Below, piece after piece: positions 8,283 through 21,870 of a stretch of DNA of 64,000 bases; within the stretch, counting starts at the first letter, position 1; each line of letters begins with the position of its first letter. The notes beneath the pieces are model-generated. The model was not told where the DNA came from and did not search any database. It saw nothing but the letters and a program-made list of their open reading frames with translations. The position numbers were made by a program, and so were the translations under genes. Origin of the DNA: Halococcoides cellulosivorans (GTDB lineage Archaea; Halobacteriota; Halobacteria; Halobacteriales; Haloarculaceae); NCBI RefSeq assembly GCF_003058365.1, contig NZ_CP028858.1:1488001-1552000 (forward strand), given 5' to 3'.

Positions 8283-9518
8283 ATGAGCGACGGTGGCTTC
8301 CACGACGTGATGGCCCTCTCGGACGCGCGCCAGCGCCTTCTGGAGCGATGTCAGCCACATTCCCGACGCGACCAGATGGCCGTCGAAGACGCCGACGGCC
8401 ACGTCCTCGCGGAGGCCGTGCGGGCGGCCCGGGCGGTCCCCCACTACGATCGAGCGGCGATGGACGGGTTCGCGGTCCGGGCGGCCGACACCTTCGGCGC
8501 GAGCGAGCGGTCTCCCGTGACGCTCTCGCTGGCGGACGGCCGGGTCGAAGACGGCGAAGCCGTCCAGGTCCACACGGGGAGTGCGATGCCCACGGGGGCC
8601 GACGCGGTCGTGATGGTCGAGCAGACCGAGCGGCGCGAGGGCACGCTGCTGGTCTCCGACGCGGTCGCCGCCGAAGAAAACGTCGCCCCGACCGGCGAGG
8701 ACGTCGCCCGAGACGCGCGACTGTTTGCGGCCGGCCATCGACTCTCGCCCTCGGATCTCGCCTTGCTCAGGACGACGGGTCACGACACCGTGTCCGTCGT
8801 CGATCCGCCCCGGGTGAGCGTGGTGCCGACGGGCGAGGAGGTCGTCCCGGCCGGGAGCGATCCGGCGCCGGGCGAGGTCGTCGAGACGAACGGACTGCTG
8901 GTCTCGACGCTGGCCGAGCGGTGGGGGGCCACCGCGACCCATCGCGACGTCGTCACCGACGACGAGACCGCGCTGCGGCGGGCGATCGAGGCCGACACCG
9001 ATCACGACGTGATCGTGACGACCGGCGGATCGTCGGTCGGTGAGCGCGATCTCGTCGCGGACGTCGTCGAAACGGCCGGGTCCGTCCTGGTCCACGGCGT
9101 GGCGATCCACCCCGGCCACCCGGTCGGGGTCGGCGTCGTCGACGAGACGGTCGTCGTCATCTGTCCCGGCTATCCGGTCTCCTGTCTGGTCGCGGCCGTC
9201 CAGTTCCTGCGCCCCGCGATCGCCGCCCTGGAAGGGGTCGAACCGCGACCGCACCCCACGACCCGCGGTCGATTGGGCGCGAAGATCCGCAGTCGGCCGG
9301 GCCGGCGGACGTTCGCTCGCGTTCGAGTCACCGATCGGTCGGCGGACGACCTGCCCACCGTCGAACCGATCCGGACCGGCGGTGCCGGCGTGCTGTCGAG
9401 TGTCACGACGGCCGACGGCTGGGTCGTCGTCCCCGAATCGCGCGAGGGGATCCCCGCCGAGGAACGGGTCGCCGTCCAGGAGTGGGAGCGCGTCCCGACG
9501 CGCCCACGGTCGGAGTGA
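8283..9518 (+). CDS. moeA2: MoeA molybdotransferase, single-domain paralogue
   Basis: The 411-residue MoeA starts at the ATG of MSDGGFHDVMALSDA; earlier in-frame codons translate to an arginine-rich non-coding stretch. Family motifs are YDRAAMDGFAVRAADT, GSAMPTGADAVVMVE, PTGEEVVPAG, TTGGSSVGERD and ICPGYPVSCL. It inserts the metal into adenylylated molybdopterin. Unlike the paralogue at 4119 it has no extra binding domain. It is divergent from moaA with 130 bp between them, which probably holds both promoters. Confidence 0.93.
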   Translation: MSDGGFHDVMALSDARQRLLERCQPHSRRDQMAVEDADGHVLAEAVRAARAVPHYDRAAMDGFAVRAADTFGASERSPVTLSLADGRVEDGEAVQVHTGSAMPTGADAVVMVEQTERREGTLLVSDAVAAEENVAPTGEDVARDARLFAAGHRLSPSDLALLRTTGHDTVSVVDPPRVSVVPTGEEVVPAGSDPAPGEVVETNGLLVSTLAERWGATATHRDVVTDDETALRRAIEADTDHDVIVTTGGSSVGERDLVADVVETAGSVLVHGVAIHPGHPVGVGVVDETVVVICPGYPVSCLVAAVQFLRPAIAALEGVEPRPHPTTRGRLGAKIRSRPGRRTFARVRVTDRSADDLPTVEPIRTGGAGVLSSVTTADGWVVVPESREGIPAEERVAVQEWERVPTRPRSE

Positions 9519-11077: not shown

Positions 11078-11497
11078 ATGAATCACGCGACGGATCGACT
11101 CCGGCGATACATGGAGGACGAACTGGGCGAGTGCCGGGACGACGACGTGGAGGCGCGTCTCGAAGAACTCGGATCGCTGGAACGGGCCATCGGAGACCAG
11201 CTATCGAGCGACCTCGACGTCCTCTCGGCGCTCGCGAGCGAGACCCGCTATACGCTCGTGCGGGCGCTCGTCGCCGCCCGCGAGGAGTTGTGCGTCTGTG
11301 AACTCCAGGGGCTGGTCGATGTCAGCGAGAGCGGGTTGAGTCACGCGCTCTCCGAACTCGTCGAGGCGGGACTACTCACCGGTCGGAAGGACGGCCGCTG
11401 GAAGAAGTATCGGGCGACGAACCGGGCGATCGCGATCGTGACCGTCCTCGACGGGAGCGTCGGGTCGGACGCGACCGCCACGGAGGACCAGCGATGA
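11078..11497 (+). CDS. arsR: ArsR-family arsenic-responsive repressor
   Basis: The 139-residue protein has a winged-helix domain at about residues 45-120. The alpha-3 metal motif ELCVCELQG gives the Cys-x-Cys pair used by ArsR proteins to sense As(III)/Sb(III). The recognition helix reads VSESGLSHALSELVEAGLL and the wing is RKDGRWKKYRAT. The ATG at 11078 gives MNHATDRLRRYMEDEL. Its stop overlaps the acr3 start by 4 bp (ATGA), so it heads the arsR-acr3-arsC operon and probably regulates it. Confidence 0.92.
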   Translation: MNHATDRLRRYMEDELGECRDDDVEARLEELGSLERAIGDQLSSDLDVLSALASETRYTLVRALVAAREELCVCELQGLVDVSESGLSHALSELVEAGLLTGRKDGRWKKYRATNRAIAIVTVLDGSVGSDATATEDQR

Positions 11498-12678
11498 GCG
11501 CGGTCGAGCACGACCACGGGCCCGACTGTGGCTGTCCGGACTGTGGCGACCCACGGTCGATGGATTTCCTCGACAAGTACCTCACCGTCTGGATTTTCGG
11601 CGCGATGGCGATCGGGGTCGGCCTGGGCTATATCGCCCCGGGCGTCACGGGACCCATCCAGGAGTTCCACCTCGTCGAGATCGGGTTGATCGCGATGATG
11701 TACCCGCCGCTGGCGAAGGTCAACTACGGGCAGTTGCCACGCGTGTTCGCCCAGTGGCGCGTCCTGGGCCTGAGCCTGATCCAGAACTGGCTGATCGGCC
11801 CGACGCTGATGGTGGGGCTCGCACTGATCTTCTTCGGTGGGATCGTGCCCGGACTGCCCGCGCGCCCCGACTTTTTCCTCGGGCTGGTCTTCATCGGGAT
11901 GGCGCGGTGTATCGCGATGGTGCTGGTCTGGAACGACCTCGCTGATGGATCGAGCGAGTACGCCGCAGGACTGGTCGCGTTCAACAGCGTCTTCCAGATC
12001 CTGACCTACGGGGTGTACATCACCGTCTTCGCGCTCGTGTTGCCCGAAGTGCTCGGGCTGGAGACACTGACCGCGGGGATCGACGCGTTCGAGATCACGG
12101 CCAGACAGGTCTTCGAGGCGATCGCGATCTTCCTGGGGATCCCCTTCGCCGCGGGGATCGCCTCGCGGGTCGTTGGCACCCGCACGAAAGGCACCGAGTG
12201 GTACGACGAGTCGTTCGTGCCGACGGTCGATCCGCTCACGCTGATCGCGTTGCTCTTTACGGTGATCGTGATGTTCGCGATGCAGGGCGAGCGCATCGTC
12301 GGCCAGCCGACCGACGTACTGTTGATCGCCGTGCCGTTGACGATCTACTTTATCGTGATGTTCGTCGTGAGCTTCGCGATGGGCCACCGGATCGGTGCGG
12401 ACTACTCCACGACGACGGCGATCGGGTTCACCGCCGCCTCGAACAACTTCGAGTTGGCCATCGCCGTCGCCGTCGCGGTGTTCGGCGTCGGATCGAGCGT
12501 CGCCTTCACGACCGTCATCGGCCCGCTGATCGAAGTGCCGGTCCTGCTATCCTTGGTCTACGTCGCGCTGTGGCTTCAGCGGACCATCGACTGGCGCGGG
12601 CACACGACTGGACAACTCGATAGCACGACACCGACGAGCGCTGCGGACGACACCGACCCCGACACGGAGGACGACTAA
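11494..12678 (+). CDS. acr3: Acr3 arsenite efflux permease
   Basis: The 394-residue membrane protein has about ten transmembrane helices. It carries the Acr3 hallmark cysteine in helix 4 (ARCIAMVLVWNDLA) and the conserved glutamate in FTAASNNFELAIA of helix 9. It exports arsenite using membrane potential or proton force. The cytoplasmic N-terminus adds a small Cys cluster (DCGCPDC, about residues 10-16) that could collect arsenite for export, which is inference. It overlaps arsR by 4 bp and is followed 1 bp later by arsC. Confidence 0.95.
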   Translation: MSAVEHDHGPDCGCPDCGDPRSMDFLDKYLTVWIFGAMAIGVGLGYIAPGVTGPIQEFHLVEIGLIAMMYPPLAKVNYGQLPRVFAQWRVLGLSLIQNWLIGPTLMVGLALIFFGGIVPGLPARPDFFLGLVFIGMARCIAMVLVWNDLADGSSEYAAGLVAFNSVFQILTYGVYITVFALVLPEVLGLETLTAGIDAFEITARQVFEAIAIFLGIPFAAGIASRVVGTRTKGTEWYDESFVPTVDPLTLIALLFTVIVMFAMQGERIVGQPTDVLLIAVPLTIYFIVMFVVSFAMGHRIGADYSTTTAIGFTAASNNFELAIAVAVAVFGVGSSVAFTTVIGPLIEVPVLLSLVYVALWLQRTIDWRGHTTGQLDSTTPTSAADDTDPDTEDD

Positions 12679-12679
12679 C

Positions 12680-13123
12680 ATGACAGAAGCGGCTGATCCA
12701 ACGGATACGACTCGAATCGCCTTCGTTTGCGTCCAGAACGCCGGTCGTTCGCAGATGTCGACGGCGTTTGCCGAACGCGAGCGCGCAGAGCGCGGCCTCG
12801 AGGATCGCGTCGAGATCCTGACCGGTGGGACTCATCCGGCCGACGCAGTCCACGACGAGGTGGTCGCCGTGATGGACGAACGCGGAATCGACCTCTCGGA
12901 TCGGACGCCACGGGCGGTGACGACCGACGAACTCAGTTCGTGTGACGTCGTCGCGACGATGGGCTGTTCGACGCTCGACGTGAGCGCGGTCAGTGACGAC
13001 GTGGACGTTCGGGACTGGGCCCTGGCCGATCCGGACGGCGAGGACCTCGATCGCGTCCGCGAGATCCGCGACGAGATCGAACGGCGGGTCGGCGCGCTGT
13101 TCGACGAACTCAGCGCCGAATAG
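12680..13123 (+). CDS. arsC: ArsC-type arsenate reductase / low-molecular-weight phosphatase family
   Basis: The 147-residue protein has the CX5R active-site loop CVQNAGR (Cys17-Arg23) and the motif GTHPADAVHDEVV. A second cysteine occurs in TMGCSTLDVS (about Cys95), matching the first resolving cysteine of thioredoxin-linked arsenate reductases. A further cysteine seven residues on is not seen, so the electron donor may differ from the classical plasmid enzyme. It would reduce arsenate to the arsenite that Acr3 exports. It is the last gene of the arsR operon. Confidence 0.85.
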   Translation: MTEAADPTDTTRIAFVCVQNAGRSQMSTAFAERERAERGLEDRVEILTGGTHPADAVHDEVVAVMDERGIDLSDRTPRAVTTDELSSCDVVATMGCSTLDVSAVSDDVDVRDWALADPDGEDLDRVREIRDEIERRVGALFDELSAE

Positions 13124-13253
13124 GGGCCCGCCGGCCGAGAACGTCGTCCGGATCGGCGTGGCGATCGATCGCTCGTCGGTCGGGAGTCACCGTCGAGCAA
13201 ACCACCCGAGATGTCCGATCGTTTGCAGTCAATATTCGGGTGGGACAGCCATG

Positions 13254-13260
13254 TTATATA
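13254..13260 (+). promoter_or_regulatory. TATA box of the Cys-pair lipoprotein gene
   Basis: TTATATA lies 25-31 bp upstream of the ATG at 13285, in an AT-rich island that stands out from the GC-rich surroundings. The spacing predicts an essentially leaderless transcript and an independent promoter for this gene, separate from the arsC operon. Confidence 0.6.
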
Positions 13261-13284
13261 CTCGATGCACATATAATATTTATT

Positions 13285-15099
13285 ATGGATGAGCGCGCCC
13301 GTTCGACTCTCGACACAGACGATCACGTCGACACGCCCCCACAGACGACGCGACGCGCGGTCCTCACGGCGGGTGGGACGATCGCACTCGGGGGTCTCGC
13401 CGGCTGTGTTGCGGTCGATGGGCTTTGGGATCGAGCCAGTGAGCGAGCGATCGGGACCACGTCGGCGTCGCCAGCCAGTTTCTACAGCGGTGGCGCAATC
13501 GACGACGTGACGGCGTACAGAAGCGGTCCGATCGACGTCCGGTTCGTCCCACCGACGCTGCGAGCCGAGTCGCGACGGATCGACATCGACGGCTGGAGCA
13601 CCAGCGCGGCCACGAACGCACAGGACTACAACTCCTCGCGGTCGAACAAGCCGCGGACGACCTACTGGCCCGATCCCGATTCGGACGGCGACGGAATCTC
13701 GACGCTCGTGACCGTCCTCGACATCGAGCGGTCGCTGGTGGTCTATGCCGACGCCGCCATCGGGGCCATCGAAGAGCGGTCGGCCGACGACGCGACGGCA
13801 GCCCTCGACGCGTTCGTCGACGCGACGACGGCGGTCCAGGCGGCCCTCGACGGCTGTCCGACCGAGCTTTGCAGGACTGTTTCCGACCACGCGGACGGCC
13901 GGAAAGATCTCGCCCGGGACGCGACCGACGCCGTGAGCGCGGGCAGGTGGGACAGCGCGCGGCGATCGATCCAGCAGGCCCGGCGGATCGTCCAGAGCGA
14001 TATCGACCGCATCCACGACGACCTCGACAGCGATGGCGACGGACTCCCGGACGCCACGAAGTCCCTCTACGAGTACCTCGACGGAGAGCCGACGATCGCA
14101 GAGCAGTTCGTCGTCAGTCTCCCGGACACCCGCGTTCCCGACGGCCCGGCGCTCGAATCGGAACTCACGCCCAAGCGCGTGCTCGAATATTTCACCGGCG
14201 ACCGCAACGCCGAGGGCTGTGCCGACAGCGACAGGGCCGCCGCGGTCCATCGGGACCTGGCCTGTCGTGACCTCCTCACCGCGACGATCGCACTCGATGG
14301 GGGCGACCTCGACCAGCATCGAGACATCGACACGAAAGACATCCGACGCGGCGTCGCTGCCTTCGGAACCACGAGCGGTGTCGTCGTCACCGGCGCGTCG
14401 CCAGCGGCCGCGGTCGCCGAGCCGATGGCCCGGGTCACGAGTGACTGCTGTGCGGCGGACACCTGCTGTTTCGATTACGATTCCTGGGGCGAGGAGATCA
14501 CCGCCGGAGCGGCGACCGTGACCCCAACCTTCGTCGTCCCCGTGGTCGCGACGCCGCCAGACTGCCCGTCTCCGATCCCCGCGCTCTTGTACGTGCGCCG
14601 GATCCGCCACGACGACCAACTGCTCTACGTCGGCGGGTGGCACATCGACGACGGCGCGCTCTACGAGAACAGCGCGACGCTACTGGTCGCCGACGGCCCG
14701 AACGTCGTCGCCGGCGTCACGCGCTCGGACATCGAAGACGGCGCTATCGACCTCGTGAAAATGGCAAGCGACGACAGAGTCGTTCGGAAAAAGCCCGGGC
14801 GGACGAAATACGCGACCGCGACGGTGACCGGCCGGTACGACCCGGACGCCGAGTACCTTCCGGCAGGGGCTCACTCGGTGTGTCGATCCGACGGAGACCT
14901 CTACTGCTGGGGCGTGCAGTCTCGGGAAGCACTCGCGACCCACGACACGACCGACTGCGACGACCGGGACCCCGACGTCCGCCCGTCGGCCGTCACGACG
15001 GCGCTCGACGCTCCGGTCCTCCACCTCGTCGAGGCTGGGGACGCATCGAACGACGTGAAGTTCAAAGCGGGGGCCGAGCTGTCGAAATCGGTCAATTAG
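13285..15099 (+). CDS. Tat-exported lipoprotein of unknown function with Cys-pair motif, in arsenic island
   Basis: No family is recognised for this 604-residue protein. The N-terminus has a twin-arginine motif (TRRAVLTAGG), a short hydrophobic core and a lipobox LAGC, so it should be exported folded and anchored by lipid at the outer membrane face. Two calcium-loop-like stretches occur, PDSDGDGIST and DLDSDGDGLPD (thrombospondin-3/EF-hand style). A cluster CC-AADT-CC (Cys388, 389, 394, 395) resembles a thiol site for soft metals or arsenite, and more cysteines are scattered. The start was chosen at 13285 rather than an upstream GTG because of the TATA spacing. It sits between arsC and arsM, so a role in arsenic resistance is suspected but unproven. 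Confidence 0.75.
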   Translation: MDERARSTLDTDDHVDTPPQTTRRAVLTAGGTIALGGLAGCVAVDGLWDRASERAIGTTSASPASFYSGGAIDDVTAYRSGPIDVRFVPPTLRAESRRIDIDGWSTSAATNAQDYNSSRSNKPRTTYWPDPDSDGDGISTLVTVLDIERSLVVYADAAIGAIEERSADDATAALDAFVDATTAVQAALDGCPTELCRTVSDHADGRKDLARDATDAVSAGRWDSARRSIQQARRIVQSDIDRIHDDLDSDGDGLPDATKSLYEYLDGEPTIAEQFVVSLPDTRVPDGPALESELTPKRVLEYFTGDRNAEGCADSDRAAAVHRDLACRDLLTATIALDGGDLDQHRDIDTKDIRRGVAAFGTTSGVVVTGASPAAAVAEPMARVTSDCCAADTCCFDYDSWGEEITAGAATVTPTFVVPVVATPPDCPSPIPALLYVRRIRHDDQLLYVGGWHIDDGALYENSATLLVADGPNVVAGVTRSDIEDGAIDLVKMASDDRVVRKKPGRTKYATATVTGRYDPDAEYLPAGAHSVCRSDGDLYCWGVQSREALATHDTTDCDDRDPDVRPSAVTTALDAPVLHLVEAGDASNDVKFKAGAELSKSVN

Positions 15100-15111
15100 G
15101 GTCAGGCCCGC

Positions 15112-15948
15112 TCAGCGCGTCGGTTTCCGCGCCTCGATCGTCGCAGAACGGATATACTCGCTCGGATCGTGGTCGTCGTCCCACTCGCTGATAAAGGCCG
15201 CACTGTCCGCGTTCGGCTCGACCCGAATATCGACGAATCCAGCGTCCGCGAGCAGGTCCTCGACGGTTTCGACGGTCGAGGCCCCGGCGACACAGGCCGC
15301 CAGCGAATCCGGATCAGAGGCGATGTCCTCGGGCAGCGGCGCGGTCTTCACCACATCGGAGACGGCAAGTCGACCGCCGGGGGCAAGTGCGCGAAACGCC
15401 TCCGCGAACACCTGGTCTTTGGCCGGCGAGAGATTGATCACACAGTTCGAGATAACGACGTCGACGCTCGCGTCAGCCACCGGTAGGTGCTCGATCTCGC
15501 CCAGTCGGAATGCGACGTTCTCCCCGTCGGTGTCTTCGGCGTTGGCCCGGGCTTTCTCGACCATCTCGGGAGTCATGTCGACGCCGATGACCTGGCCCTC
15601 CGGCCCGACTTCCCGGGCGGCGAGAAAGCAGTCGAAGCCCGCCCCCGAGCCCAGGTCGAGCACCCGCTCGCCCGCCGACAGATCCGCGATCGCTTTCGGG
15701 TTCCCACAGCCGAGACCGAGATCCGCACCGTCCGTGACCGCCGCGATGTCTTCGGGGGAATACCCGAGTCGTTCGCTGTCCGTGCCAGTCGTGTCCTCAC
15801 AGCACGCGTCGTCGCTCGTCGCCCCCGTCCCCGAACAGCAGGACCCACCGTCGTCGCTCGCGACCTCGGCGTAGCGGTCCCGGACGAGACGGCGCTGGGC
15901 GTCTGCATCACGATTCTCGGCCGATCGCTCCGACGGTGTGTCACTCAT
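15112..15948 (-). CDS. arsM: ArsM, arsenite S-adenosylmethionine methyltransferase
   Basis: The 278-residue enzyme methylates As(III) using SAM. The SAM site is VLDLGSGAGFDC, and the UbiE-like core follows. The three arsenite-binding cysteines of the family can be placed in LGLGCGNP, ISNCVINLSP and LAACVAGAST. An N-terminal Cys-rich stretch (GSCCSG and DACCED) is additional. It overlaps the upstream arsR2 by 4 bp, so regulator and enzyme are co-transcribed. Its 3' end converges on the lipoprotein gene with 12 bp between the stops. Confidence 0.95.
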   Translation of the reverse strand: MSDTPSERSAENRDADAQRRLVRDRYAEVASDDGGSCCSGTGATSDDACCEDTTGTDSERLGYSPEDIAAVTDGADLGLGCGNPKAIADLSAGERVLDLGSGAGFDCFLAAREVGPEGQVIGVDMTPEMVEKARANAEDTDGENVAFRLGEIEHLPVADASVDVVISNCVINLSPAKDQVFAEAFRALAPGGRLAVSDVVKTAPLPEDIASDPDSLAACVAGASTVETVEDLLADAGFVDIRVEPNADSAAFISEWDDDHDPSEYIRSATIEARKPTR

Positions 15949-16313
15949 TGATGTCGAAGTGCGTCGAGGCAGTCGAGAAGCTGTTCGGCGTCGTCAGTCA
16001 CACCGTAGTATCGCCAGGACCCCTCCTTTCGACGGGTGAGAAGTCCGGCCGCGGACAATCGTGAGAGTGCCTGGCTGACCCCGCTCTGAGAGATCCCGAC
16101 CGCCGATTCGAGATCGCAGACACACACGTCGCCGTCGGCCGCGCGAATGCGACGGACGAGTTCGTACCGCGTGTCGTTGCCCAGTGCCGAGAGCATCTGG
16201 ACGTCTGCGTCGATCGTGTCCGTATCGACCGCAGGAACGGTCGTACAACACGCCTCGCCGCCTGTATCGGCATCGTCGGGGCGGACCCCAGCCTCGCTCG
16301 TTTCGGAACTCAT
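15945..16313 (-). CDS. arsR: ArsR-family arsenic-responsive repressor, second copy
   Basis: The 122-residue winged-helix repressor has the metal motif DVCVCDLESA (Cys-x-Cys in alpha-3), recognition helix ISQSGVSQALSRLSAAGLL and wing RRKEGSWRYYGVT. It also has a Cys pair near the N-terminus (EACCTT). It precedes arsM with a 4-bp overlap and faces the permease gene across a 192-bp AT-rich region, so it may control both. It differs clearly from the first ArsR at 11078, suggesting separate control of efflux and methylation arms. Confidence 0.92.
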   Translation of the reverse strand: MSSETSEAGVRPDDADTGGEACCTTVPAVDTDTIDADVQMLSALGNDTRYELVRRIRAADGDVCVCDLESAVGISQSGVSQALSRLSAAGLLTRRKEGSWRYYGVTDDAEQLLDCLDALRHQ

Positions 16314-16317
16314 AGTA

Positions 16318-16350
16318 GCATATGATGATATAAGCAGATGTAAATATATC
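16318..16350 (-). promoter_or_regulatory. arsR2-arsM promoter with imperfect dyad
   Basis: Read on the minus strand, GATATATTTA (16341-16350) lies about 28-37 bp before the ATG and is a good TATA element. Between it and the start is the imperfect dyad GCTTATATCATCATATGC (16318-16335), a plausible ArsR operator. Confidence 0.5.
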
Positions 16351-16432
16351 GATTGCGATCGTGGACGCCGTCTCGATCACCAGCAGCAGGGTTGGCTTCC
16401 ATCGCGACCTCCGTCGTTCACGACCATTTCTA

Positions 16433-16464
16433 TTTCAACCCGTTTTGAAACCGATGCGTATATG
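16433..16464 (+). promoter_or_regulatory. Perfect inverted repeat and TATA element upstream of the DUF318 permease
   Basis: TTTCAACCCGTTTTGAAA (16433-16450) is a 6-6-6 inverted repeat (TTTCAA/TTGAAA). A TATA-like GTATATG follows at 16458-16464, and a further TTTGAAA half-site is at 16486-16492. The GTG start at 16506 has a purine/GT-rich GGTGGTG just upstream that may serve as ribosome site. The TTCAA-type half-sites echo the TTGA/TCAA element in front of the first arsR. Confidence 0.5.
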
Positions 16465-16505
16465 AGCAGCGGTGTTTTAGATTAGTTTGAAATGGTGGTG
16501 ACGCA

Positions 16506-17672
16506 GTGACCGCAGTCGAACTACTCGTCCAAGTACTCCGGGCAGGTGTCGACGAGACGCTGTCCTACCTGACGTTGCACGTCGTCACGTGCCTGGTGCC
16601 GGCCTTCTTCATCGCGGGAGGGATCTCAGCGATCCTCTCGGATCACTTCGTGACCAAGTACCTCAGCGCGGACGCCCCGAAACTCCACGCCTACACGCTC
16701 GCGTCGGTGTCGGGCATCGCGCTCGCGGTGTGTAGCTGTACGATCCTCCCGATGTTCGCCGGCCTGTACAAGAAGGGTGCGGGAATCGGCCCCGCGACGG
16801 CCTTCCTGTTCTCGGGGCCGGCGATCAACGTGCTGGCCGTCGTGTTCACCGCGAGTGCACTGAGTCTCCCGCTCGGTGGGGCAAGGGCCTTTTTCGCCGT
16901 GACGATGGCCGGTGCGATTGGCCTGACGATGGCCGCGGTCTTCGGGGAACCCGAAGGCGAGAGTCCGGACGGACGGCCCGTCGCCACCGACGGGGGAGTC
17001 GTCACCGAACGCGACCGGCCGCTCTGGGTGACGGGCGGCTTTTTCGGCAGCCAGGTCGCGATCCTATTGATCGCCGCGACGGGACTGCTGACCTGGACGG
17101 TCAAAGCGCCGCTGCTCGCGCCGCTGTTCGCTGTCCTCGGATACTTGCTCTGGACCCAGTTCGATCGGAGCGAGATCGACGCGTGGCTCGAAGAGACGTG
17201 GTTTTTCACGAAGACGATCTTCCCACTGCTGATCGCCGGAACCTTCGTGATCGGGATCATCGGTGCGATCGCGGCGATCGCCCAGGGGATGGGGCCCCTG
17301 GCGACGGTCACGACCGACGCTGGCGAGACGTTCGCGGCCCACCAGGTCGCGCCGGGCCTACTCACTCAGGGGATCTTCGGTGAGACGACCGTCCTCTCGA
17401 CCGCGCTCGGGGCGGTCATCGGCGCAATCCTCTACATGCCGACGCTGCTCGAAGTGCCGATCATCGGCTCGCTGTTCGGGTACACCAACGGCCTGATGGC
17501 CGACGGGCCCGCACTCGCACTCCTGCTCGCGGGCCCGTCGCTGTCGCTCCCGAACATGCTGGTGATCTGGAAGACCATCGGCACGAAACGGACGGCGCTG
17601 TACGTCGCGCTCGTCGCCAGCGCGGCCACGATTGCAGGCCTAATCTGGGGCCTGATCATCGCCCCCATTTGA
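16506..17672 (+). CDS. DUF318/UPF0718-type permease, ArsP-like
   Basis: The 388-residue polytopic membrane protein (about eight to ten helices) starts at GTG. It has the family signature AVCSCTILPMFAGLYKKG followed by FLFSGPAINVLAV, and a repeat of the inverted-half signature in LLAGPSLSLPNMLVIWK near the C-terminus. Members of this family include ArsP, which exports trivalent organoarsenicals, and others annotated for metals. The Cys-x-Cys in the signature is suited to thiophilic substrates. Next to arsM, export of methylated As(III) is the obvious hypothesis. A CPRC thioredoxin-like gene follows at 17736. Confidence 0.85.
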   Translation: MTAVELLVQVLRAGVDETLSYLTLHVVTCLVPAFFIAGGISAILSDHFVTKYLSADAPKLHAYTLASVSGIALAVCSCTILPMFAGLYKKGAGIGPATAFLFSGPAINVLAVVFTASALSLPLGGARAFFAVTMAGAIGLTMAAVFGEPEGESPDGRPVATDGGVVTERDRPLWVTGGFFGSQVAILLIAATGLLTWTVKAPLLAPLFAVLGYLLWTQFDRSEIDAWLEETWFFTKTIFPLLIAGTFVIGIIGAIAAIAQGMGPLATVTTDAGETFAAHQVAPGLLTQGIFGETTVLSTALGAVIGAILYMPTLLEVPIIGSLFGYTNGLMADGPALALLLAGPSLSLPNMLVIWKTIGTKRTALYVALVASAATIAGLIWGLIIAPI

Positions 17673-19270: not shown

Positions 19271-20329
19271 TTAGCGCCGCTCACGGGCGCGATCGACGAC
19301 ACGTTCGAGTCGATCCAGATCCGGTTCGTAGTCCTCCGGGAGTCGAACCGGCAGATCGTCAGTGTCCCGCTCGGCGAGCAATCGAGCGAGCCGTCCGGGA
19401 TGCTGTTCGGCGATCTCCCCACGATCGAGGTCGGTCGCGGCGAGCACCGCTGCGTCGTCTGCGGTGGCGCCCAGCACCATCATGCGGGCCCGCTCGACGA
19501 GGTGGTCCGTTCGATCAGGCGGCAAATCGACGCGTCTGGCGAGTCGTCGCGGATCGGCGTCGGCCAGATCGCCGACGCGCTCGACGTCGCCGTCCGCGAG
19601 GCGTTCCTGGAGACGATCACCGACGCCCTTGACCGCGTGAACGGGTTTGCGCGACCACTCCGTGGGCTCACGCTCGGGTCGCTCGTCGTCCGTCCGCCCG
19701 TCGTCGGTATTCGAGTCACCGTGGCTCGGCCCATCCCCGTCGTCTTCGGGCAACAGGATCGGATGCTCGTAGGTCTGGCCGTCGGGCCCACTCGACGCTC
19801 CAGACTGATCGTCCGAGCCCTGAGACTCCTCGATGGGGGGCAGATCGCCCGCATCGACGGCGTCCTGGAGGCTCTCGACGACCGACGGGTCGAGTCTGGC
19901 CCCGAGGTCGTCCCAGGTCAGTCCCGGCACCGGACTGGCCGCCGCGGGGGAGTCCTCGCCGCCGTCACCGGTGCGAGTCGGCAGTTTCCCACCAGGGGAC
20001 AGCTGTAGGCGGAAGCTCCCGCCCGTTCCGCCGGGGACGATCGAAAGCTGGTCGGATCCGTCGCCCGACGCGCCGGTGTCACCGAGGGTTGGGAGGTTTC
20101 CGAGTCCGCCGCCGAGCCCTCCGCCACCTGGACTATCACCGCTCTGTCCACCCTGACTGTCGTCGGACTCTTCGGGAGTTTCGACGCCGAACGGGACCTC
20201 GACTTCGACATCGGCGACCCTGAGCGACGGCTGGTCGTCGGGGCGCTCGTCGTTGCGGGCTTCGATCTCGTCGACCGCCTGCTGGAGGTCGCGCTGTACC
20301 AGATTCATGACCGCACCGATTCGTGGCAT
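19271..20329 (-). CDS. Uncharacterised protein with trypco2-like N-terminus and helix-hairpin-helix C-terminus
   Basis: The 352-residue protein is the third gene of an unknown operon. The N-terminal ~50 residues have a helix followed by LRVADVEVEVPFGVE, similar in shape to the trypsin-co-occurring domain 2 pattern (weak, by eye). Residues ~55-225 are a low-complexity Gly/Asp/Ser-rich linker including GGGGLGGGLGNLP. From ~228 to the end are helix-hairpin-helix type repeats (VHAVKGVGDRLQERL), which usually bind DNA or mediate protein contacts. It starts 1 bp after the preceding gene's stop. Function unknown; no signal peptide or membrane segment. Confidence 0.8.
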   Translation of the reverse strand: MPRIGAVMNLVQRDLQQAVDEIEARNDERPDDQPSLRVADVEVEVPFGVETPEESDDSQGGQSGDSPGGGGLGGGLGNLPTLGDTGASGDGSDQLSIVPGGTGGSFRLQLSPGGKLPTRTGDGGEDSPAAASPVPGLTWDDLGARLDPSVVESLQDAVDAGDLPPIEESQGSDDQSGASSGPDGQTYEHPILLPEDDGDGPSHGDSNTDDGRTDDERPEREPTEWSRKPVHAVKGVGDRLQERLADGDVERVGDLADADPRRLARRVDLPPDRTDHLVERARMMVLGATADDAAVLAATDLDRGEIAEQHPGRLARLLAERDTDDLPVRLPEDYEPDLDRLERVVDRARERR

Positions 20330-20330
20330 G

Positions 20331-20993
20331 TTACTTGAAGTGCATACTCGTCGAGAGTTCGCCGACGGCGTCGCCGTTCAGCCCCGCCGGCGGGGCAGCG
20401 GCGTCGATCACCGACGCGTCGAGCTGATCGTCGAACGCGACTTTCACGTCGAGGTCGATGTCCTCGACGACCGGTTCGGGCACGCCACCGCTGGCGACCC
20501 GCTGGAGGGCGTCTTTCCGTGGCTGACCGATCTCGGTCGCGATCGCCTCGCGGACACGCTCGACCGCGGCCTCGGTGAGAAAGGCCAGCCCGTTACGGAC
20601 CTCCAGAGTCGCCTCGCGATCGGCCAGCAGGTCGACGCCCAGCTCCGCGAGGGCGTCGTAGCTCCGGGCTCGATCCGGAGGGACGAACTCGGGATGGAGA
20701 AAGACCTCGTTCGGTCGGATCGCAGAGTGACCGGGCTGCCAGGTCTCGAGATAGCGATCGAGCGCGTCGCCCGAGAGCGCGTCGCCCAGGAGATCGCGCG
20801 GCGGTTCGTCGAGCGGCGGACATCGCTCGGCCAGCACGGCCCGCACCTCACGCTCGTCGGCGAACGCCGCGGGCGGATCGTCGAGTCGGGCTTCGAGGTC
20901 CGCGAGGCTGGCCGCCGTGCGGCGCTCGCCCGCGAGTGCGCCCGCCGCGCCGTCCTCGACGAGCCGTGAGAGCACCGTCGAGAGTCGCCCCAT
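20331..20993 (-). CDS. Uncharacterised 220-residue protein, middle gene of three-gene operon
   Basis: Not recognised. The N-terminal two thirds are predicted mostly alpha-helical and acidic. The C-terminal part contains VVEDIDLDVKVAFDD, which resembles DVEVEVPFGV in the downstream protein, and ends LSTSMHFK. There is no signal peptide or membrane segment. It is 3 bp from the upstream gene's stop and 1 bp from the downstream start, so all three are surely co-expressed. The conserved, non-repetitive composition argues that it is a real gene. Confidence 0.82.
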   Translation of the reverse strand: MGRLSTVLSRLVEDGAAGALAGERRTAASLADLEARLDDPPAAFADEREVRAVLAERCPPLDEPPRDLLGDALSGDALDRYLETWQPGHSAIRPNEVFLHPEFVPPDRARSYDALAELGVDLLADREATLEVRNGLAFLTEAAVERVREAIATEIGQPRKDALQRVASGGVPEPVVEDIDLDVKVAFDDQLDASVIDAAAPPAGLNGDAVGELSTSMHFK

Positions 20994-20996
20994 CGA

Positions 20997-21824
20997 TCAC
21001 TCGCTCTCGCCGAAGCCACCGCCTTCGTTCGGGCGGAGTGGCTGGTAATCGCCGCGGATGTTGATCTCGACGCGGCCCATGATGTCGACCGAGGCCTCAC
21101 TGCTCGACATCTCGCGTTTGGTCATCGTCGAGACCGACGTGTTGTGGTGGTTGGCGTACCCACCGACGTTGAACGACCCGAGCGAGAGCCCGGCGTTGGC
21201 TCCCGCACTGGTCGACGAGCGGTCGTACTCCGTGTCGGTCTGGCGGGTGTACTCCGAAGCGTTGGTATTGAAGTTCAGCTTCGTCTCGATCGTCCCGTCG
21301 TCGACGACGACACGGACGATGCCCTGCGAGACGAGGTCTTTCAGGGCTTCGAGGCGCGGGCCGGCGATGTCACGGCGGACGCACTTGCGGATCGTGGTCA
21401 CCTGTTCGCCACTCAACTCCAGGGTCGGCTCCTCGCCCTCGGAGCCGCTCGCGTCGTCGGGAGCGGGAAGCGTCAGATTGAGTTCCTCGGCCTCGTCGCC
21501 GAGTTTTCGGTTCAGAATCTCGAGATCGGTCTTCGTCAACGTTCCGGGCTCGTCGGTCGTGCCGACCGCCGTCGTGCCGGATTCCTCGCCGGGGAACTTG
21601 CCGATCAGCCAGTCGGTGACGTCGCGATCGATCACCGCCTCCTGTTCGAACTCCGAGACCGACATCGACACCTTCTCCACCAGATCGGCGTACGCCTCCT
21701 GCTGGCGAATCATCGAGGTGACGATGGCGTTGAAGGTGTCCTCGATCAGTTTCGAGGTGAACTCGGGGAACTCGATTTCGTCGAGGCGCGTGGCGTTGTC
21801 GACCGCGTCGGATGCTGGTGGCAT
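20997..21824 (-). CDS. Uncharacterised 275-residue protein, first gene of three-gene operon
   Basis: The start at MPPASDAVDNATRL is fixed by the composition change just upstream and by TATA-like TATACCTATA on the minus strand (21861-21870). Residues ~10-75 form a predicted helical domain (FPEFTSKLIEDTFNAIV, then EAYADLVEKVSMSVSEF). An acidic linker follows, and residues ~150-275 are beta-rich. That part has a Ser/Gly/Asn-rich section (SLGSFNVGGYANHHN) and the strand VEINIRGDYQPL. The layout recalls bacterial DUF2589-type proteins by eye only. It has no export signal. It heads the operon with the 220- and 352-residue proteins and is divergent from a LiaF-like membrane protein. Confidence 0.82.
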   Translation of the reverse strand: MPPASDAVDNATRLDEIEFPEFTSKLIEDTFNAIVTSMIRQQEAYADLVEKVSMSVSEFEQEAVIDRDVTDWLIGKFPGEESGTTAVGTTDEPGTLTKTDLEILNRKLGDEAEELNLTLPAPDDASGSEGEEPTLELSGEQVTTIRKCVRRDIAGPRLEALKDLVSQGIVRVVVDDGTIETKLNFNTNASEYTRQTDTEYDRSSTSAGANAGLSLGSFNVGGYANHHNTSVSTMTKREMSSSEASVDIMGRVEINIRGDYQPLRPNEGGGFGESE

Positions 21825-21860
21825 GAACTGTTCCTCGAACGACCACTCGACGGGCGGTCT

Positions 21861-21870
21861 TATAGGTATA
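21861..21870 (-). promoter_or_regulatory. TATA element of the three-gene operon
   Basis: TATACCTATA on the minus strand lies 37-46 bp before the ATG at 21824, in a 225-bp divergent spacer. A short untranslated leader is implied. Confidence 0.45.

What the first reader, a model, noticed from the sequence alone, without database searches (positions are those of the whole stretch)
19271..21824. Three-gene operon of unknown haloarchaeal proteins sharing a beta-strand motif
Three genes with 3-bp and 1-bp spacers encode a 275-residue helical/beta protein, a 220-residue acidic protein and a 352-residue protein with a trypco2-like start and helix-hairpin-helix tail. I recognise no established family. 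The second and third share a similar strand (EDIDLDVKVAF versus ADVEVEVPFGV), and the first has VEINIRGDY in its beta region. The Ser/Gly/Asn-rich beta section of the first recalls bacterial DUF2589-type clusters. Together they look like a multi-part complex, possibly a conflict, stress or assembly system, with DNA or partner binding through the HhH tail.
Basis: partly seen in the sequence, partly recalled or inferred. Interest (0 to 1): 0.72.

Follow-up and report, generated by a model that had tools for sequence, protein, structure and literature searches.

The report
Mobile three-gene haloarchaeal scaffold operon
Three neighbouring genes of unknown function in a salt-loving archaeon form a real, horizontally moving operon that encodes two sister proteins and an adaptor; distant bacterial relatives sit beside protein- and cell-wall-cutting enzymes, which suggests an assembly used in microbial conflict, but its function is untested.

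Summary
The three genes are real and co-directional (3-bp and 1-bp spacers). P1-P2-P3 recur in the same order in four other haloarchaeal genomes with unrelated flanks; the operon is absent from nearly all genomes searched. P1 is ~88% identical between two archaeal families whose RFC-L is only 62% identical, so the unit moves horizontally. P1 and P2 are full-length paralogues (profile E 1.3e-9; score 68 vs 17.9 best of 100 shuffles); P1 alone carries the Ser/Gly-rich beta hairpin. P3 has a Trypco2-like N-domain and a confidently predicted RadA-type HhH tail. P1 has bacterial relatives on Burkholderia and Tolypothrix plasmids; in Burkholderia, P1-like, an 87-aa gene and P3-like lie in the same order, in an operon with subtilase, amidase/C92/C70 and patatin genes. 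Haloarchaeal DUF2589 (PF11655) operons have the same plan: a paralogous pair, then a Trypco2-like gene, some with an HhH tail. The DUF2589 hint is right as an organisational analogy, but P1 is not a DUF2589 member by Pfam, and direct homology is marginal. The strand proposed as shared by P2 and P3 is not supported. Best reading: a soluble scaffold/adaptor assembly of a conflict-type system. Function is inferred.

The parts
20997..21824 (-). P1, 275 aa: N-terminal helical region, conserved helix-strand, Ser/Gly/Asn-rich beta hairpin, closing strand VEINIRGDYQPL
   Evidence: homologues; alignments
21261..21755 (-). P1 residues 24-188, homologous to P2 residues 9-190
   Evidence: hhalign 96.4%, E 1.3e-9, score 68.3 vs 17.9 best of 100 column shuffles
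21036..21293 (-). P1 residues 178-263: two amphipathic strands flanking a Ser/Gly-rich segment; absent from P2
   Evidence: beta-moment scan; alignment; no long hydrophobic segment
20331..20993 (-). P2, 220 aa, shortened paralogue of P1 without the hairpin
20424..20969 (-). P2 residues 9-190, the part homologous to P1
19271..20329 (-). P3, 352 aa: Trypco2-like N-domain, acidic low-complexity linker, HhH tail
20174..20329 (-). P3 residues 1-52, helix plus strand of the Trypco2-like domain (second strand near residues 95-114, about 19988-20047)
   Evidence: P3 plus bacterial P3-like profile vs haloarchaeal gene C: E 2.4e-5, score 31.8 vs 17.1 best shuffle; Burkholderia counterpart vs PF19631 E 0.0098
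19274..19657 (-). P3 residues 225-352, helix-hairpin-helix tail
   Evidence: HHH_5 residues 233-282; AF2 pLDDT 89.5, pTM 0.85; PDB fold matches to RadA/RAD51C N-terminal domains and DinB-type HhH
21859..21864 (-). TATA-like box (TATAAG) 40 nt upstream of the P1 ATG; candidate operon promoter
   Evidence: read from sequence; weak, by eye

Best explanation
The operon encodes a soluble, three-component hetero-oligomeric scaffold/adaptor complex of the same organisational type as DUF2589 operons. P1 and P2 are paralogous structural subunits; P1 extends a Ser/Gly-rich beta hairpin that P2 lacks, which would let it self-associate or contact a partner. P3 is the adaptor: its Trypco2-like domain would dock on the P1/P2 assembly, and its RadA-type HhH tail on a long acidic linker would hold a client (DNA or a protein). 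The unit moves between haloarchaea as a self-contained cassette. By analogy with the bacterial operons, where relatives of P1 and P3 lie among subtilase, cysteine-peptidase/amidase and patatin genes, it most likely organises effectors in a conflict or defence response. Shown by sequence: the gene set, its order, transfer, P1-P2 paralogy, the bacterial P1 and P3-like relatives and (by prediction) the HhH fold. Inferred: complex formation, the docking roles and the conflict function.
For: Same three genes in the same order in window, A07HR67, G065, G402 and G754 with unrelated flanks. Rare: 2 of 146 family and 2 of 392 order genomes, counting the window's own. Horizontal transfer: P1 93%/85% (two parts) between window and A07HR67 versus 62% for RFC-L; same-family G065 has P1 46% but RFC-L 65%. 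P1-P2 paralogy E 1.3e-9. Bacterial P1 relatives: tblastn E 6e-12 over 91% of P1, Burkholderia 361-aa copy E 3e-22. Burkholderia order P1-like, 87-aa, P3-like (Trypco2 E 0.0098), S8, with Amidase_2+C92+C70 upstream and patatin and cyclase downstream. Haloarchaeal DUF2589 operons: paralogous pair A/B (E 9e-17), then gene C with Trypco2-like N-domain and, in some, HhH tail. No signal peptide or TM-like segment.
Against: No effector or peptidase gene flanks any archaeal copy examined, and the all-helical component of the bacterial operons was not found in the five archaeal genomes. P1 versus DUF2589 homology is only marginal (score 25-28 vs 19-21 shuffled, 21.9 reversed), and P1 does not hit PF11655. 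The P2 slot in bacteria (87/122 aa) shows no detectable similarity to P2. Complex formation was not tested; the P1 structure prediction failed (pLDDT 39). Bacterial P1 relatives were seen on only two plasmid lineages.
Confidence: 0.42

Rival explanations
1. An effector-free structural particle or filament, not a conflict system: P1/P2 co-assemble through helices and beta hairpins, and P3 caps or anchors the assembly.
For: Paralogous subunit pair; no effector next to any archaeal copy; four P1 paralogues in one Burkholderia operon suggest a multi-subunit assembly.
Against: Patchy distribution and transfer between families are unusual for a housekeeping structure; bacterial copies sit with peptidases, amidase and lipase.
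Confidence: 0.25
2. The Ser/Gly-rich P1 hairpin is a membrane-inserting hairpin, so the operon is a pore-forming effector controlled by P2 and P3.
For: Two strongly amphipathic strands around a weakly hydrophobic Ser/Gly-rich segment; the hairpin is the part missing from paralogue P2.
Against: No structural or profile match to a pore-forming protein; no signal peptide; segment composition varies widely between homologues.
Confidence: 0.1
3. A DNA-associated complex: the P3 HhH tail binds DNA and P1/P2 load onto it, for example in repair or silencing.
For: HhH tail of the RadA, DinB and RAD51C type, with a KGVG hairpin in the window copy.
Against: Tail is net acidic (-6); Pfam HHH_5 not detected in G402; some DUF2589 gene C proteins have a charged tail and no HhH; such HhH domains also bind proteins.
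Confidence: 0.13

Closest known systems
DUF2589 (PF11655) operons of haloarchaea (G154, G176, G207, G224 and others)
   Same: Tandem paralogous pair followed by a Trypco2-like gene, with an HhH tail in some; P1 and DUF2589-A share by eye the order N-helix, hydrophobic strand, Ser-rich hairpin, closing strand
   Different: P1 and P2 do not match PF11655; DUF2589 operons have a fourth gene of about 105 aa; none of the five P1 genomes has a DUF2589 hit
Trypco2 (PF19631), adaptor domain of MoxR-vWA-VMAP conflict systems (PMC7159879, PMC10907252)
   Same: P3 N-domain resembles it, and the Burkholderia counterpart hits it weakly
   Different: Below Pfam cut-off; no trypsin, vWA, MoxR or VMAP gene recognised nearby; the bacterial relatives pair with an S8 subtilase instead
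Unnamed plasmid operons of Burkholderia pyrrocinia pBPJTT and Tolypothrix/Microchaete
   Same: Homologous P1 (E about 1e-12 to 1e-22) and P3-like genes; same order in Burkholderia
   Different: Much larger operons with peptidases, amidase, patatin or alpha/beta hydrolase, cyclase and an all-helical paralogous family; no P2 similarity detected

Membership tests
DUF2589 (PF11655) | Profile match above Pfam cut-off | tested here: not met
   No hit for P1 or P2; none in the genome
DUF2589 (PF11655) | Detectable profile-profile homology of P1 to DUF2589 | tested here: inconclusive
   Score 28.3 and 25.5 vs shuffled maxima 18.8 and 20.5, reversed 21.9; E 9e-4 and 2.9e-3
DUF2589-type operon (organisation) | Adjacent paralogous pair followed by Trypco2-like gene, HhH tail in some | tested here: met
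   P1-P2 E 1.3e-9; P3 vs gene C E 2.4e-5; HhH in both
Trypco2 (PF19631) | Profile match above Pfam cut-off | tested here: not met
   P3: none; Burkholderia counterpart 16.6 bits vs cut-off 24.2
MoxR-vWA-VMAP ternary conflict system | vWA, MoxR ATPase, VMAP and trypsin or caspase effector in the neighbourhood | tested here: not met
   Neighbours are aminotransferase, LiaF-like protein, MCP, methyltransferase, glutaredoxin, diphthamide synthase, Drg-like GTPase by eye
Helix-hairpin-helix (HHH_5) | Profile match and fold | tested here: met
   Window 19.1 bits, below cut-off; G754 orthologue 28.0 vs 27; predicted fold pLDDT 89.5, RadA/RAD51C matches prob about 1 but E above 0.2
Contractile injection system or phage tail | Sheath, tube or baseplate proteins | tested here: not met
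   Only a chance-level tail-tube hit, E 0.16; no phage or viral homologues
Listed anti-phage defence systems (PADLOC) | Match to a system model | tested here: not met
   No hit for P1, P2 or P3
Any of the above | Physical complex of P1, P2 and P3 | not testable with these tools
   Multimer prediction unavailable; P1 monomer failed

The most novel reading that the evidence does not exclude
P1/P2/P3, the bacterial S8/amidase/patatin plasmid operons and DUF2589 operons are branches of one undescribed cross-domain class of intracellular assemblies (paralogous hairpin subunits plus a Trypco2-type adaptor) that scaffold peptidase or lytic effectors, with haloarchaea carrying a stripped-down, horizontally mobile form.
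Probability: 0.3. Interest if true: 0.78.

Novelty: new variant of a known kind. Interest (0 to 1): 0.52.

Why it matters
DUF2589 and Trypco2 are conserved families without a demonstrated function that I know of, and only one paper in the held library even mentions DUF2589. Finding the same plan (paralogous pair plus Trypco2-like adaptor with HhH tail) in two unlike operon types, with P1 and P3 counterparts beside peptidase and lytic genes in bacteria, turns three orphan haloarchaeal genes into a testable hypothesis. It also offers a minimal three-gene version that could be expressed and deleted in a laboratory haloarchaeon.

Tried and rejected
P1 structure prediction with the permitted shallow alignment gave pLDDT 39 and was not used for fold searches. 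Viral-contig and phage searches found nothing, so a provirus origin is unsupported. PDB sequence searches with P1, the HhH tail and a DUF2589 found no relative. The 87/122-aa bacterial genes as P2 equivalents: no similarity. A strand motif common to all three proteins was rejected: P1-P3 and P2-P3 are at or near shuffle level. The Fil_haemagg_2 hit of P1 (below cut-off) is taken as compositional. Mutual exclusion of P1 and DUF2589 operons (0 of 5) is expected by chance at 11 of 392. Literature searches for DUF2589 and Trypco2 gave no function for these genes. I did not send sequences outside the structure tool's stated sources.

Full report
Observation. The three genes lie on the minus strand at 21824..20997 (P1, 275 aa), 20993..20331 (P2, 220 aa) and 20329..19271 (P3, 352 aa), separated by 3 and 1 bp. 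The P1 frame stays open upstream, but homologues start near the same ATG. Substitutions between the window and the A07HR67 copy are concentrated at third codon positions for P1 and P2, so these are real coding genes. The window is part of a 2.72-Mb single-contig genome.

Conservation and transfer. P1 is rare: 2 of 146 genomes of the family, window included, 2 of 392 of the order, window included, and 3 of 171 in the family of G402. Five genomes carry it: the window, MAG A07HR67 (apparently the same as G745), G065, G402 and G754. In all five, P1, P2 and P3 follow one another in the same order, while the flanking genes differ: class I/II aminotransferase and LiaF-like protein; methyltransferases; glutaredoxin and diphthamide synthase; a Drg-like GTPase by eye. 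The window and A07HR67 belong to different families, and their RFC large subunits are 62% identical, yet the two parts of P1 are 93% and 85% identical and P2 78%. In contrast, same-family G065 has RFC-L 65% and P1 46%. The identification of the yardstick protein as RFC-L is by eye from its sequence. The cassette therefore most likely moved between families.

P1 and P2 are paralogues. A P1 profile already rang at P2 in the window's own genome (E 5.5e-4). With four sequences each, hhalign gives 96.4% probability, E 1.3e-9 and score 68.3 over P1 24-188 and P2 9-190, against a maximum of 17.9 in 100 column shuffles; the N-terminal parts alone also match (E 8.8e-5). P2 lacks P1's Ser/Gly/Asn-rich hairpin and the RGDYQPL strand.

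P3. Its N-terminus (helix, strand, later strand) resembles Trypco2. P3 itself does not hit PF19631, but its Burkholderia counterpart does weakly (E 0.0098, 16.6 bits, cut-off 24.2). A profile of P3 plus the two bacterial counterparts matches the third gene of haloarchaeal DUF2589 operons over about 70 residues (E 2.4e-5, score 31.8 vs 17.1 best shuffle); without the bacterial sequences the match is weaker (E 3e-3). The tail (residues 225-352) is predicted with pLDDT 89.5 and pTM 0.85 and superposes on RadA, RAD51C and DinB-type HhH domains (rmsd mostly about 1-2 A over 55-60 residues, Foldseek E above 0.2). Its net charge is -6, so DNA binding is not assured.

Bacterial relatives. tblastn of P1 against plasmids found Tolypothrix/Microchaete (E 6e-12, 91% coverage) and Burkholderia pyrrocinia pBPJTT (E 2e-9, 95%). 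Burkholderia has four P1 paralogues; the best match to P1 is a 361-aa protein (E 3e-22). It is followed directly by an 87-aa gene and a 273-aa P3-like gene, which mirrors P1-P2-P3, and then by an S8 subtilase; a 1254-aa Amidase_2 + Peptidase_C92 + Peptidase_C70 protein lies upstream, and an adenylate/guanylate cyclase-domain gene and a patatin lie downstream. The Tolypothrix operon has an alpha/beta hydrolase, S8 subtilase, peptidoglycan-binding protein, P1 homologue and, at its end, a 122-aa gene and a P3-like protein with a weak TIG match. The P3-like genes of the two plasmids are homologous to each other, but their link to archaeal P3 rests on the shared Trypco2-like plan, tail and position, since P3 against the pair alone is weak (E 0.015, score 17.2 vs 12.1 best shuffle). 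The 87/122-aa genes show no similarity to P2. The all-helical family shared by the two bacterial operons was not found in the archaeal genomes.

DUF2589. PF11655 occurs in 11 of 392 genomes of the order, always as two adjacent copies. Where examined, the pair is followed by a gene with a Trypco2-like N-domain (with HhH in two of four scanned) and a gene of about 105 aa. The plan matches P1-P2-P3. Direct P1-DUF2589 homology is only marginal (scores 25-28 versus shuffled maxima 19-21, reversed 21.9), and no Pfam match exists, so I do not file P1 as DUF2589; I say only that the operon is organised like one.

Mechanism. All three proteins lack signal or membrane segments (hydropathy scan). The best-supported reading is a soluble hetero-oligomer: two paralogous subunits, one with an extended hairpin, plus an adaptor with a tethered HhH domain. 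Its probable role as a conflict-system scaffold rests on the bacterial neighbourhoods, on Trypco2's proposed role as an adaptor in peptidase conflict systems (PMC7159879, PMC10907252), and on patchy horizontal spread. No archaeal effector was found, and no complex was demonstrated. The P1 structure prediction failed, so the hairpin's role, including possible membrane insertion, remains open.

Noticed in passing
L002 8001-9504: In the A07HR67 copy both P1 (near 8288-8291) and P2 (near 8940) are frameshifted while P3 is open as far as the contig runs; assembly error or decay is not resolved.
   Followed up: partly
L030 2038-8453 and L020 434-15008 (Burkholderia pyrrocinia pBPJTT): Large plasmid operon with a 1254-aa Amidase_2/C92/C70 protein, S8 subtilase, cyclase, patatin, four P1 paralogues and two copies of an all-helical family: an uncharacterised multi-effector cluster.
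   Followed up: partly
L016-L019 (G154, G176, G207, G224): Haloarchaeal DUF2589 operons have four genes: two DUF2589 paralogues, a Trypco2-like gene with HhH or charged tail, and a conserved gene of about 105 aa (motif like FLEDDGSVTWL).
   Followed up: partly
window 11494-17672: By sequence appearance an arsenic-resistance island lies next to the operon: ACR3-like efflux pump, arsenate-reductase-like phosphatase, ArsR-like regulator, arsenite-methyltransferase-like gene and a permease.
   Followed up: no
L033 5293-6876 and L036 3359-4576: Vibrio plasmids carry paired DUF2589 genes; one copy in each is unannotated in the record.
   Followed up: no
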